From Clostridiales bacterium (GTDB lineage Bacteria > Bacillota > Clostridia > Christensenellales > Borkfalkiaceae), in contig SVIY01000002.1 of the NCBI GenBank assembly GCA_015069265.1, positions 1 through 46,718 of the forward strand: a stretch of DNA of 46,718 nt, written 5' to 3'. The notes under the pieces are model-generated. The model saw only the letters and a program-made list of their open reading frames with translations. It had not been told where the DNA came from and searched no databases. Below are positions 37,713-41,850 of this stretch, piece after piece (position 1 is the stretch's first letter; each line of letters begins with the position of its first letter). The position numbers and the translations under genes are program-made.

Positions 37713-37749
37713 AAGTCCTCTCCTTGTTGAATTAAACTATAAAGGCGGT

Positions 37750-37902
37750 GCAGTATTGCGCAGTATAGAGTGCCGTTTTAAGTGGTTAGATGCAAGCAAG
37801 ACAAGGCTCGCGAAGGGTTTTGGATGAAATAAACCTTTTTGGTTATTGAAGTCAAAACACTAAGCAGTAACGCAGTATTGCGCTGTATATAACCACTTAA
37901 AA
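37750..37902. repeat. Intergenic repeat pair GCAGTATTGCGC[A/T]GTATA plus inverted repeat TTTTAAGTGGTT/AACCACTTAAAA
   Basis: 17/18 direct match between 37750-37767 and 37872-37889; 12/12 inverted match between 37776-37787 and 37891-37902. Confidence 0.75.
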
Positions 37903-38015
37903 AAAGTGAACTCCCTGATTAAAATACAAACCAGGGAGGAACGTGAATCATCAAGACGACTAGCGTCTTGTAAATTCTCATAATTCATCCCTTCGCTATC
38001 AGGCGCACCTTTTAG
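37903..38015 (-). promoter_or_regulatory. Structured leader with terminator-like hairpin upstream of the ABC operon (riboswitch/attenuator candidate)
   Basis: Minus strand: AGGTGCGCC..., CAAGACGctagtCGTCTTG hairpin, then CTCCCTGGTTTGTATTTTAATCAGGGAG followed closely by TTTTTTT. Confidence 0.5.
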
Positions 38016-38125
38016 TTTAGGTATTTATAAATTAAATATAGCATATAAACTGATTATTGTCAATTATATACATAAAAAACATTAATTCTATTGCAAAACA
38101 AAATATTTTGTGTTAAACTTATATT

Positions 38126-38277
38126 GCCAAACTAATTAAATATATACGGGAATATAGGGAATTTCTCTTTTTAGGGATATTCTTTTTTCAACATCATTAT
38201 AGAATTTGATAAAATGCGAATTCCAACTTAATGGTGTTGTTTAGGCATTCCCTATTCCCTATAAGAATTAGTTTGGC
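38126..38277. mobile_element. 152-bp palindromic MITE-like element
   Basis: Perfect 12-bp ends GCCAAACTAATT/AATTAGTTTGGC, then GGGAATATAGGGAAT/ATTCCCTATTCCC, inner AACATCATT/AATGGTGTT. Confidence 0.65.
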
Positions 38278-38302
38278 GACTATCGGAGTTTGCGTTTTTT
38301 GC

Positions 38303-38331
38303 GTCAACTTCGGTTGGCGCATTTTTTATTT
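38303..38331 (+). terminator. Terminator-like hairpin just upstream of the SPFH gene
   Basis: TGCGTCAACttcgGTTGGCGCATTTTTT. Confidence 0.7.
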
Positions 38332-38343
38332 TAAGGAGGTTAT

Positions 38344-39570
38344 ATGGGACAAATTGCAGACATTATAAAATATGAAGGCGACAACTCCACCTTTATATGG
38401 AAACATCCATGCGAAGATTTTAACAGTTTAACGCAACTCATTGTTCACGAATCGCAGGAAGCAATTTTTATGATGAACGGACAAGCGTTAGATATGTTTG
38501 GCGCAGGACGTTATGCTTTAGAAACGCAAAACATCCCTAAACTCGGTAAAATCTTAAACCGAACGACAGGCGACAAAACACCATTCCATTGTGAAGTTTA
38601 TTTTATTAATAAAACAGAACAAATGGCAATTAAATGGGGAACAGATAGTCGTGTTCAGTTTATTGAACCAACATATGGGTTCCCGATTTCTATCGGAGCA
38701 AGTGGCGAAATGACTCTCCGTGCAGACGATTCAAGAAAACTCTTATTAAAACTCGTTGGTACGGAAAACGATTTATCACAAGCAAAGCTCGTTCAGTATT
38801 TCCGCGCTTTCTTGATGACGAAAGTAAAAAGTTATCTTGCACAAACGATAAAATCGCAAGGAATTAATATCTTTGAAATTGACGAGAAATTACAAGAGCT
38901 TTCTGCAAAATTAAACGAAATGCTCCGCCCCGATTTTGAAGATTATGGTGTAGCGCTTGAAAGATTTTTCGTTACGACTATTGTAAAACCTGACGGCGAC
39001 GCTCAATATGAACGCTTTAAGTCTTTACACTTCCGTCAATATGCCGATATAGCTGAGGCAAAATTAAAACAACAAACAGATATTATTTATGCTCAAACGG
39101 AAGCGCAAAAAGTAGTTATTGACTCACAGGCTCAAGCGACAAAGCGCGCGCAAGAAGGCTATACATATCAACAAGAACGCGGTTTTGACGTCGCCCAAGA
39201 TATGGCGCAAAACGAAGCGAGCGGGCAATTTACTAATATGGGTATTGGCCTCGGTATGATGGCTGGTGTTGGTGGCACAATGGCAGGCGTTGTTGGTGGC
39301 GCAATGAACGAAGCTTTCAACGGAACACCTACTACTCAAACTAAATGCGTTAAATGCGGTGCAAGTCTTCCTAATAACGCTAAATTTTGTTTAGAATGTG
39401 GCGAGAAGGTTGTTGAGTCCAACACCATTATTTGTCCTAAATGCGGAAAAACTGTAATTAAAGGTAAGTTTTGCCCCGAATGTGGTCATAAATTCGCAAG
39501 CATTTGTCCTAAATGTGGCGCAGATACAAAAGGCGGTAAATTCTGCCTTGAATGTGGCGAAAAATTATAA
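38344..39570 (+). CDS. SPFH-domain protein with C-terminal multi-zinc-ribbon (virion-core/YdjI-like)
   Basis: MGQIADIIKYEGDNSTFIWKHPCEDFNSLTQLIVHESQEAIFMMNGQALDMFGAGRYAL; C-terminal CVKCGASLPNNAKFCLECGEK, CPKCGKTVIKGKFCPECGHKF, CPKCGADTKGGKFCLECGEK. Confidence 0.9.
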   Translation: MGQIADIIKYEGDNSTFIWKHPCEDFNSLTQLIVHESQEAIFMMNGQALDMFGAGRYALETQNIPKLGKILNRTTGDKTPFHCEVYFINKTEQMAIKWGTDSRVQFIEPTYGFPISIGASGEMTLRADDSRKLLLKLVGTENDLSQAKLVQYFRAFLMTKVKSYLAQTIKSQGINIFEIDEKLQELSAKLNEMLRPDFEDYGVALERFFVTTIVKPDGDAQYERFKSLHFRQYADIAEAKLKQQTDIIYAQTEAQKVVIDSQAQATKRAQEGYTYQQERGFDVAQDMAQNEASGQFTNMGIGLGMMAGVGGTMAGVVGGAMNEAFNGTPTTQTKCVKCGASLPNNAKFCLECGEKVVESNTIICPKCGKTVIKGKFCPECGHKFASICPKCGADTKGGKFCLECGEKL

Positions 39571-39581
39571 GGAGGCAAACG

Positions 39582-40286
39582 ATGAAAAAGAATTTTAAGT
39601 ATTTTGGTATTACTTGGATAGTCGGCTTTATTCTTTTTAACGCGATTACGTTTATAATTCCTAACGAGATTTTTGGCGTAACACGTTTTGATAAAGGCGT
39701 TTTTTGGATAGCATATGGACTTATTACCCTATCGTTTATCGCTCAACTTATAACGGCGTATAAATTTGTTAAAGATAATAGCAACGATAAAACATTCTTA
39801 AACATTCCGCTATTAAGAACTGGATACATAGCAATCATCGTTTCAATAATCGTTGGAATATCCTTTATGATATTCCCTATGCTTCCTGCTTGGATAGGTG
39901 CAATCGTTTGTTTGCTAATTACAGGCTACTTCGTAATTGCTTGCGTTAAGGCTTCTGCCGTAGCAAACATTGTCGCGGATATCGATACAAAAGTAAAAAC
40001 GAAAACGGCTTTTATGCGTATGGCTATCGTAGAAGCAGAAAACATTTTAGCCCGTGCTACTACTAACGAGATAAAAGCAGAAGTAAAAAAGGTTTATGAA
40101 GCGTTAAAATATAGCGACCCAATGTCAAATTCTGCACTTGATGATATTGAGCAAGAAATTAATAACGGCTTAAAGGAACTTAAAAAAGCAGTTACGTGTA
40201 ACGATAGCGCAACAGTTTTAAGTATTGTTGCGGACTTATTACTAAATGTTAAAGAAAGAAATAGTAAATGTAAGGAGTTAAAGTGA
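39582..40286 (+). CDS. Membrane protein with multiple TM segments and a soluble C-terminal domain
   Basis: RBS AAGGAGG then MKKNFKYFGITWIVGFILFNAITF...; start trimmed from 39552. Confidence 0.75.
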   Translation: MKKNFKYFGITWIVGFILFNAITFIIPNEIFGVTRFDKGVFWIAYGLITLSFIAQLITAYKFVKDNSNDKTFLNIPLLRTGYIAIIVSIIVGISFMIFPMLPAWIGAIVCLLITGYFVIACVKASAVANIVADIDTKVKTKTAFMRMAIVEAENILARATTNEIKAEVKKVYEALKYSDPMSNSALDDIEQEINNGLKELKKAVTCNDSATVLSIVADLLLNVKERNSKCKELK

Positions 40287-40295
40287 GGTGTTTTT

Positions 40296-40466
40296 ATGGC
40301 TGATATGGGAACAAAAGAAGCAAGTGAAAAATGGGGCTATTCACAAGCGACAATCAGTAAATGGTGTAGAGAAGGATTGATTCCTAATGCTACACAGGAT
40401 AAGCCTAATAGCCCTTGGCATATACCTAAGGACTCGCAATGTCCAAGAAAAATAAAAGGAGCGTAA
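40296..40466 (+). CDS. 56-aa MerR/excisionase-like helix-turn-helix protein
   Basis: MADMGTKEASEKWGYSQATISKWCREGLIPNATQDKPNSPWHIPKDSQCPRKIKGA*; not in the ORF track. Confidence 0.8.
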   Translation: MADMGTKEASEKWGYSQATISKWCREGLIPNATQDKPNSPWHIPKDSQCPRKIKGA

Positions 40467-40469
40467 AAT

Positions 40470-40787
40470 ATGCGGGTAGAGGAGTTAAAAAACAAATTAA
40501 CAAAAATAGTAGAGGTACAAGTAGAAATTTTTAGGGATGTATGTCATACCTCAAAATATAATTATTTAGCTCTGCATAGTGAGAATTTAACACGTGAAGA
40601 GAAAGAAATAAAAAATCTTTGTGTTGAATGTGTATTAAAACGTAATAGAATATGGATAGATTTAGAAACTCTTGCAGACACCGCTGTTTACAATAGTAAC
40701 AAAGAAAACATCAATAGTGAAATACAAGACTTGGAAATAATTCTTAATAAAATCAACGAGCTCAAGAAAAAAATAAATTGGAATTAA
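40470..40787 (+). CDS. Hypothetical 105-aa protein
   Basis: ORF tightly following the HTH ORF, coiled-coil-rich C-terminus. Confidence 0.65.
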   Translation: MRVEELKNKLTKIVEVQVEIFRDVCHTSKYNYLALHSENLTREEKEIKNLCVECVLKRNRIWIDLETLADTAVYNSNKENINSEIQDLEIILNKINELKKKINWN

Positions 40788-40800
40788 AGGAGAAATAATC

Positions 40801-41805
40801 ATGAAACAATTAACTTGTGAAATGTGTGGAAGTACAGATTTAGTAAAACAAGAAGGGTTTTTCGTGTGTCAAACTTGTGGAACAAAGTATTCTGTTGAAG
40901 AAGCCAAAAAGATGATGATTGAAGGTACTGTTGAGGTTAAAGGTACGGTTAGGGTGGACGATAGTTCGAAGATTAATAATTATTTAGAACTTGCAAAAAC
41001 CGCTTATGAAGGTGATGATATTAATAGTGCTATTTTATATTGTGATAAAGCATTAGAAATTGACCCTAATAATTATAACGCATGGATGCTTCGTGCTAAA
41101 ACCGTTGGATGGGGTTCTTCGTTGGCAAATAAAAAAGTGCGCCAATCTATAACTGCAGCTACAAAAGCAATCGCATTGGCTCCAGAAAACGAAAAAGAAA
41201 AGGTGGCAGACGAATTAATAACTGACTTAACTAAGCAAATATATTCTTTAATCAATTTGGCTGAAAAACTTGCAAAAGTTTCTCCAGTAGAAGCCGCCAA
41301 ACACATACATACAATAATGACAATATGGTTGTCAATTATAAAATTGCCGAATGCTAGTAAAAAAACATTACGCGAAATAATAGATTTATGCAAAGTTATG
41401 TCAGAAACAACACCTTCATATGTAGGGGGAGCTGCAATCACTCACAATAATAATGAGCCATATTGGATAACATTTAAGAAAGCTATACTTCCAGACGAAG
41501 TAACTTCTGTAGAACGAGAAAAGAAACAAGGTAAATCTGGTTGTTACGTTGCAACTTGTGTGTATGGTTCGTATGATTGTCCACAAGTTTGGACTTTAAG
41601 AAGATACCGCGACAATACCCTTGGTTCAACGTGGTATGGAAGAGCATTTATTCGTACATATTATGCGATTAGCCCTACTTTGGTTAAATGGTTTGGTAAA
41701 ACAAAGTGGTTCAAAAAAATGTGGAAAGGCAAACTTGATAGAATGGTTAAAAAATTACAAGACAATGGTGTAGAAAGCACACCATATAACGATAAAAAGT
41801 GGTAA
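40801..41805 (+). CDS. Zinc-ribbon/TPR protein with CFI-box-CTERM-like C-terminus
   Basis: CEMCGSTDLVKQEGFFVCQTCGTKYSVEEAKKM; TPR-like AILYCDKALEIDPNNYNAWMLRAK; GCYVATCVYGSYDCPQVWTLRRYRDNTLGSTWYGRAFIRTYYAISPTLVKWFG. Confidence 0.85.
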   Translation: MKQLTCEMCGSTDLVKQEGFFVCQTCGTKYSVEEAKKMMIEGTVEVKGTVRVDDSSKINNYLELAKTAYEGDDINSAILYCDKALEIDPNNYNAWMLRAKTVGWGSSLANKKVRQSITAATKAIALAPENEKEKVADELITDLTKQIYSLINLAEKLAKVSPVEAAKHIHTIMTIWLSIIKLPNASKKTLREIIDLCKVMSETTPSYVGGAAITHNNNEPYWITFKKAILPDEVTSVEREKKQGKSGCYVATCVYGSYDCPQVWTLRRYRDNTLGSTWYGRAFIRTYYAISPTLVKWFGKTKWFKKMWKGKLDRMVKKLQDNGVESTPYNDKKW

Positions 41806-41817
41806 TGCACATAAACA

Positions 41818-41849
41818 AAAAAGGCAGTCCGTATACGGACTGCCTTTGT
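41818..41849. terminator. Bidirectional terminator
   Basis: AAAAAAGGCAGTCCGTatACGGACTGCCTTTG. Confidence 0.85.
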
Positions 41850-41850
41850 T

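What the first reader, a model, noticed from the sequence alone, without database searches (positions are those of the whole stretch)
38344..41805. Candidate undescribed module: SPFH/zinc-ribbon, membrane protein, mini-HTH, 105-aa protein, zinc-ribbon/TPR-CFI protein
Five co-directional genes with short gaps form a plus-strand block between minus-strand core genes, with its own palindromic leader and terminators at both ends. Two members carry zinc ribbons, two have membrane or SPFH (membrane microdomain) features, and one is a tiny HTH. The set resembles a membrane-stress or defence cassette rather than housekeeping. I know of no named system with this exact composition.
Basis: inference. Interest (0 to 1): 0.62.

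Follow-up and report, generated by a model that had tools for sequence, protein, structure and literature searches.

The report
Mobile membrane-gene module with RNA switch
A gut bacterium carries a transferable set of membrane-associated genes, whose relatives often include an immune-type TIR protein, behind what looks like a previously unlisted RNA switch that also precedes hundreds of other, mostly cell-surface, accessory genes in related bacteria.

Summary
The five ORFs and the palindromic leader are real, but "five-gene module" is not the right unit.

1. The conserved core is three genes: SPFH/zinc-ribbon protein, 4-TM protein (MP), zinc-ribbon/TPR protein. I found SPFH and MP on one strand in 36 loci (≤130 nt apart in 35), with a same-strand zinc-ribbon/TPR protein in about 30. 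In about 20 loci that third protein carries a TIR domain; in four, including the window, a CFI-box; in one, LRRs. Third-gene types are interspersed on the SPFH tree. The core also occurs on a prophage-like contig and a Butyrivibrio plasmid. PspA, partner of the related B. subtilis YdjI, is absent from all carriers tested. HTH and 105-aa genes are not core. The module's site is empty in a same-genus genome.

2. The leader (38126-38321) belongs to a structured RNA class with no Rfam 15 match: at least 119 loci in a capped scan, 56 of 291 genomes of the class, none in about 195 genomes outside it. P1 and a pseudoknot covary; nearly every copy ends in a terminator, and the pseudoknot strand can instead pair with the terminator apex. 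It looks like a transcription attenuator, possibly a new riboswitch class, upstream mainly of envelope genes.

Defence function and ligand are untested.

The parts
38111..38119 (+). extended -10 promoter element (TGTTAAACT) fixed 12 nt before P1
   Evidence: Across 95 copies the -10 hexamer (TATACT-like) starts at -12 or -13 from the P1 G in 86; TG at -15/-14 in 77
38126..38294 (+). structured leader RNA: P1 38126-38137/38266-38277, P4 38189-38198/38230-38239, P5 38202-38208/38217-38223
   Evidence: CM R1 112.8 bits; P1 98.4% paired with 5 of 12 pairs changed on both sides; P4 arms -17.3 own vs -6.5 kcal swapped; coordinates checked
38216..38224 (+). shared strand GCGAATTCC: pairs with P5 5' arm or with 38285-38293 (pseudoknot)
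   Evidence: Pseudoknot 99.7% of cells paired in 37 sequences, 3 of 9 pairs with double changes; P5 92.7%
38282..38293 (+). switching strand ATCGGAGTTTGC: pseudoknot 3' strand (38285-38293) or antiterminator 5' strand (38282-38290)
   Evidence: Pairs with terminator apex in 90% of cells over 167 copies, register slides <=0.60; A-T 148/G-C 11 vs 6 A-C/G-T exceptions at one pair
38300..38321 (+). intrinsic terminator, UUCG loop; apex 38306-38314 is the antiterminator partner
   Evidence: 140 of 141 copies have such a terminator (46 of 465 control windows)
38333..38339 (+). Shine-Dalgarno AAGGAGG, 12 nt after the terminator stem
   Evidence: Sequence
38344..39570 (+). SPFH (Band_7_1) protein with C-terminal zinc ribbons, 408 aa
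   Evidence: Pfam PF13421 2e-39, DZR 2.9e-12; clade apart from resident YdjI-like paralogues
39582..40286 (+). MP: membrane protein, 234 aa, four predicted TM helices + C-terminal helical domain
   Evidence: No Pfam, NCBIfam, PADLOC or PHROG family; AF2 pLDDT 73; no PDB fold match below E=0.2
40296..40466 (+). mini-HTH (HTH_17/excisionase-like), 56 aa; accessory
   Evidence: PF12728 2.3e-6; 100% in G009 only
40470..40787 (+). 105-aa protein, no family; accessory
   Evidence: No significant hit; 97% in G009 only
40801..41805 (+). zinc ribbon - TPR - CFI-box protein, 334 aa; third core gene
   Evidence: NF041770 72.6 bits at aa 248-316; homologues in the same position in L055, L070, L144, replaced by LRR_5 or TIR versions elsewhere
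41817..41850 (.). palindromic terminator between module and SpoIIID
   Evidence: Inverted repeat I5, 94%; terminator-like site
38064..41850 (.). stretch absent from same-genus genome G042, where SpoIIID and the transporter operon are directly adjacent

Best explanation
A horizontally acquired, membrane-associated effector module under an attenuator RNA. SHOWN in silico: (a) SPFH + MP + zinc-ribbon/TPR protein form a recurrent operon whose third protein is modular (TIR, CFI-box, LRR or no recognised extra domain) and is exchanged while SPFH-MP stays; (b) the module is an accessory insertion in this genus; (c) it is preceded by a covarying structured RNA with its own promoter, pseudoknot, and mutually exclusive antiterminator and terminator pairings. 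INFERRED: SPFH oligomers and MP form a membrane platform that senses envelope perturbation or phage entry and holds the zinc-ribbon/TPR protein; triggering releases an effector activity, likely NAD-linked in TIR versions and unknown, possibly membrane-directed, in the CFI version here. INFERRED for the RNA: when strand 38216-38224 captures 38285-38293 in the pseudoknot the terminator forms and the genes are off; when it does not, 38282-38290 pairs with the terminator apex and transcription reads through. A ligand or cofactor probably biases that choice.
For: 36 loci with SPFH and MP on one strand, 35 within 130 nt, ~30 with a same-strand zinc-ribbon/TPR protein; named example L144 = leader + SPFH + MP + zinc-ribbon/TPR/CFI; third-gene types interspersed on the SPFH tree, e.g. 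G148_CFI next to G254_TIR (82/54, weak) and window_CFI next to G009_LRR (100/99); TIR alignment with an invariant E in GxxYEPxI; prophage-like contig L350 with lysin and recombinase just before SPFH-MP-TIR; Butyrivibrio plasmid pNP21; empty site in G042; no PspA in 30 genomes, 9 of 14 controls positive. RNA; no Rfam match.
Against: No experiment. The window copy has no TIR, so an NADase effector cannot be claimed for it. TIR alignment to solved plant TIR L6 puts the conserved Glu two residues off the catalytic one (catalytic residue from memory), so catalysis is unproven. Neighbours of this copy are not defence genes; around other copies, defence families among 79 neighbours are a minority. 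The leader precedes SPFH in only 3 loci (window, G188, L144), not in 90%-identical G009, so RNA and module are separable. Own-vs-swapped pairing of the antiterminator is nearly equal (0.904 vs 0.899) because both strands are conserved; its support rests on register and one covarying pair, and the varying copies are partly related. The P2 arm is less well supported than P4.
Confidence: 0.6

Rival explanations
1. Module is an envelope-stress or membrane-fluidity scaffold of the YdjI type with no immune role; the third protein is an adaptor, not an effector.
For: SPFH domain is Band_7_1 with C-terminal zinc ribbons, as in YdjI, which with YdjG/H brings PspA to the membrane in B. subtilis (PMC8581546; PMC11237479); the leader's other client genes are mostly envelope proteins.
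Against: PspA absent from all 15 carriers tested; module SPFH is a clade apart from resident YdjI-like paralogues (100/99); patchy distribution, mobile-element carriage and TIR/LRR/CFI exchange are unlike a housekeeping stress complex.
Confidence: 0.3
2. Leader RNA is a discrete small RNA, or acts on its own RNA polymerase (put-like), rather than being a ligand-sensing attenuator.
For: Promoter at a fixed 12-13 nt from P1 in 86 of 95 copies and a strong UUCG terminator define both ends of a ~200-nt RNA; client genes share no pathway.
Against: Terminator sits just before the Shine-Dalgarno (gene start median 59 nt after the core); conserved terminator apex matches the switching strand with a covarying pair; the antiterminator fold is more stable than the terminator in 38 of 49 tested.
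Confidence: 0.3
3. Leader is a DNA-level mobile palindrome (MITE, REP or attC-like) rather than an RNA.
For: Multi-copy, scattered; GCCAAAC/GTTTGGC ends resemble integron attC arms (from memory); 24 of 155 copies lie within 600 bp downstream of a tRNA gene, one in a 1.97-kb tRNA-Arg islet with a 46-bp repeat.
Against: Arms differ between copies yet stay complementary; pseudoknot and antiterminator pairings are conserved, with fixed promoter, terminator and ribosome-binding-site order; no arrays.
Confidence: 0.05

Closest known systems
Bacillus subtilis YdjI-YdjG/H-PspA (PMC8581546)
   Same: SPFH of the Band_7_1 type with C-terminal zinc ribbon, neighbouring membrane protein
   Different: No PspA in carriers; MP matched no known protein family here; third zinc-ribbon/TPR protein with TIR, CFI or LRR; accessory and mobile
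TIR-based anti-phage systems (Thoeris ThsB and others)
   Same: Related loci carry a TIR domain in an operon with membrane components; weak PADLOC similarity to ThsB and PDC-S66
   Different: No ThsA-like partner seen; SPFH and MP unknown to PADLOC; the window copy has no TIR
Conflict systems with zinc ribbons, TPR and effector exchange (PMC7159879)
   Same: Conserved core with variable effector-like parts, membrane link
   Different: No NTPase core; SPFH occurs in that paper only in its reference list
Transcription-attenuating riboswitches (e.g. c-di-GMP class, from memory)
   Same: Aptamer-like junction with pseudoknot, terminator before the ribosome-binding site, alternative pairing, many unrelated client genes
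   Different: No Rfam 15 match at E<=1 in 20 copies and at E<=0.5 in the loci of the short variants; ligand unknown; fixed promoter; clients are mostly accessory envelope genes

Membership tests
YdjI/PspA envelope-stress complex | Band_7_1 SPFH with zinc ribbon | tested here: met
   PF13421 2e-39
YdjI/PspA envelope-stress complex | PspA encoded in the genome | tested here: not met
   0 of 30 genomes; control rings in 9 of 14; own genome is only 76% complete but the other carriers are >=93%
Known anti-phage system (PADLOC) | Matches a PADLOC model | tested here: not met
   No SPFH, MP or CFI match; TIR only weak PDC-S66/ThsB
TIR NADase effector | TIR domain present | tested here: not met
   Absent from the window copy; present in ~20 related loci
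TIR NADase effector | Catalytic Glu (in the relatives) | tested here: inconclusive
   Invariant E58, but two residues off the L6 Glu in the alignment
Riboswitch / attenuator RNA | Conserved structure with covariation | tested here: met
Riboswitch / attenuator RNA | Mutually exclusive terminator and antiterminator | tested here: met
   Sequence-level only:
Riboswitch / attenuator RNA | Binds a ligand | not testable with these tools
   Needs in-line probing
Any Rfam 15 family | Score at or above gathering cut-off | tested here: not met
Integron attC | RYYYAAC/GTTRRRY arms, cassette arrays | tested here: not met
   Arms are GCCAAAC/GTTTGGC; copies fetched are mostly single

The most novel reading that the evidence does not exclude
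The leader is a new riboswitch class, with hundreds of copies in Clostridia, that senses a signal of envelope damage or phage attack and switches on mobile envelope and SPFH-linked conflict genes; the SPFH-MP-zinc-ribbon/TPR(-TIR) operon is a new anti-phage system with exchangeable effectors.
Probability: 0.3. Interest if true: 0.9.

Novelty: new variant of a known kind. Interest (0 to 1): 0.74.

Why it matters
A structured RNA found in about a fifth of sampled genomes of a large gut class, with a testable switch and no Rfam entry, would be a candidate new riboswitch class whose client list (lipoproteins, LRR surface proteins, SPFH, TIR) points to an unknown envelope or attack signal. Separately, the SPFH-MP-zinc-ribbon/TPR operon would tie an SPFH membrane scaffold to TIR-type immunity in bacteria; I found no paper that describes that link.

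Tried and rejected
Five-gene unit: rejected, because HTH and 105 aa were found with the module only in G009. PspA link: rejected. Rfam: no match even at permissive E-values. Flanking att repeats as a general rule: rejected; only L187 is clear, other long repeats occur about as often in control regions (the first try, crashed, and one search's first rows are edge artefacts). Foldseek of MP: no match. CFI model too poor to search (pLDDT 63). One search's antiterminator energies are invalid (implausible values); one search picked the wrong loop; both are superseded. One search printed a wrong stretch for the partial copy on C91. Transporter-leader motif as another RNA family: found only in the two same-genus genomes. 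Literature: no TIR+SPFH defence paper; 'Tir' in PMC11237479 means CesT/Tir chaperones. 'CFI-box': no paper.

Full report
OBSERVATION. The five plus-strand ORFs are exactly where stated, with the stated domains. They lie between a minus-strand ABC-transporter operon and minus-strand SpoIIID. The leader folds at -67 kcal/mol, z=-7.4. A terminator at 38300-38321 lies before the first start codon and a palindromic one closes the block.

WHAT THE MODULE IS. Searches of 248 genomes of the order found the MP in 20 genomes and this SPFH in many more, most of them distant YdjI-like paralogues. Fetching neighbourhoods and a second set from the class (22 of 291 genomes) gave 36 loci with SPFH and MP on one strand. 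The gap is at most 130 nt in 35, and about 30 have a same-strand zinc-ribbon/TPR protein close by. Several loci without one end at a contig edge; L345 was missed by that script's zinc-ribbon filter but carries a TIR protein.

The third protein is modular. About 20 loci have zinc ribbon-TPR-TIR-TPR followed by DUF6273, RCC1 repeats or other tails. Four have a CFI-box (window, L055, L070, L144). G009 has LRR_5 on the same N-terminus. On the SPFH tree these types are interspersed, and module SPFHs are separate from resident paralogues (100/99).

HTH and 105 aa are shared with the module only in G009, a different family, at 100% and 97%, while SPFH is 90% and MP 79%: a recent transfer or mosaic.

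MOBILITY. In same-genus G042, SpoIIID is followed at once by the transporter operon, so the leader plus module is an accessory insertion here (or, less simply, a loss in G042). L350, an IMG/VR contig, has a GH25-like lysin and a serine-type recombinase directly before SPFH-MP-153aa-TIR (the lysin and recombinase are read from sequence, not from a family search). Butyrivibrio fibrisolvens plasmid pNP21 has SPFH, an MP-like protein and a zinc-ribbon protein beside a restriction specificity subunit, a recombinase and a toxin-antitoxin pair. Recombinase-like proteins lie next to several other loci. Around the order loci, 79 neighbours include type I restriction, Dnd/Ssp-like and mads-like proteins, but most are ordinary genes.

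FUNCTION OF THE MODULE (inference). PspA, the partner of YdjI, is absent from all 30 genomes tested, including 15 carriers. MP is predicted as four TM helices plus a confident C-terminal helical domain without a fold match. TIR domains keep an invariant Glu, but its register against a solved TIR is two residues off. I favour a membrane platform with exchangeable effectors; an envelope-stress complex is the main rival.

THE LEADER. Comparing upstream regions showed 88% identity over 74 nt between window and G188. The core motif occurs at dozens of places in 33 of 248 genomes of the order, 3 in this genome, far above a reversed-pattern control, and on three viral contigs carrying one sequence. 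The genome-collection scan stopped at 119 loci; the 80 listed titles are Clostridia-type MAGs, mostly from gut samples. A covariance model finds it in 38 of 248 genomes of the order, 56 of 291 of the class, up to nine per genome, and in none of about 195 phylum genomes outside the class (only the own genome matched). A shorter variant lacks the long arm but keeps P1 and the pseudoknot with changed letters. No Rfam match appeared in the window, in 20 loci, or in 17 loci with short or weak variants.

ANATOMY OF THE LEADER. P1 is 98.4% paired with pair changes C-G/U-A, A-U/U-A/C-G and others. The pseudoknot GCAAAUUCC:GGAGUUUGC is 99.7% paired in 37 sequences. P4 arms differ between copies but match within a copy: -17.3 vs -6.5 kcal/mol for swapped arms. 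P1 pair 10 goes with the N of GACN in most of 97 copies (A-U with A 38, U-A with U 24, C-G with U 20). An extended -10 promoter sits at a fixed distance. A terminator follows in 140 of 141 copies (46 of 465 controls), and the start codon lies a median 59 nt after the core. Clients are enriched for lipoproteins (25% vs 6%), N-terminal signal or TM (55% vs 19%) and any TM (70% vs 33%) (simple predictors).

SWITCH. The strand RUCGGAGUU, part of the pseudoknot, also pairs with the terminator apex AACUUCGGU (90% of cells, at most 60% in shifted registers), and one pair covaries: A-T 148, G-C 11, against 6 A-C or G-T (p=1e-12, not corrected for relatedness). The tail-plus-terminator fold beats the terminator alone by at least 1 kcal in 38 of 49 copies. 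GCAAAUUCC also pairs with GAAUUUG (P5, 92.7%), so P5/antiterminator and pseudoknot/terminator form two alternative states. This is the logic of a transcription attenuator; ligand sensing is inferred.

LOCATION. 24 of 155 copies lie within 600 bp downstream of a tRNA gene, 22 on the same strand; no copy has a tRNA within 600 bp on its downstream side. In L187 one copy and one lipoprotein gene sit between tRNA-Arg and a 46-bp repeat of its 3' end. The leader and the module are separable: SPFH is preceded by it only in the window, G188 and L144, and in L115 it precedes a zinc-ribbon/TPR/TIR-like gene.

VERDICT. Observation confirmed; interpretation partly supported and extended. The module is a new variant of membrane-linked, effector-exchanging conflict-type systems (function unproven). 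The leader is a structured RNA class absent from Rfam 15 and a strong orphan-riboswitch candidate.

Noticed in passing
window 37713-38063, minus strand; L305 8800-9000: The ABC transporter has a leader ~70% identical to that of same-genus G042 (CCTAAACTAAAAGGTGNGCCTGATAG...), with no Rfam match; the motif was found in only these two of 151 genomes.
   Followed up: partly
L187 2347-4390: tRNA-Arg(CCT) with a 46-bp exact repeat of its 3' end 1966 bp downstream, enclosing one leader RNA and a single lipoprotein gene without an integrase: a one-gene islet.
   Followed up: partly
L102-L104 (IMG/VR contigs): The same leader RNA precedes a zinc-ribbon membrane protein on viral contigs.
   Followed up: no
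G000 C64, C77, C84, C91 (L299-L301, L105, L106): Further copies in the window's own genome; two have P1 changed to GTCACAC/GTGTGAC, keeping full pairing, before small and membrane proteins.
   Followed up: partly
L335, L338, L342: MP carries a long C-terminal extension (open frames of about 426-547 aa) in these loci.
   Followed up: no
L144 3136-4206: A 356-aa protein of unknown family follows the SPFH-MP-CFI genes; not searched.
   Followed up: no
L283-L298: Short variant of the RNA (about 115-140 nt, no P4 arm, pseudoknot GCAAGCUCC:GGAGCUUGC), several copies per genome in one family.
   Followed up: partly
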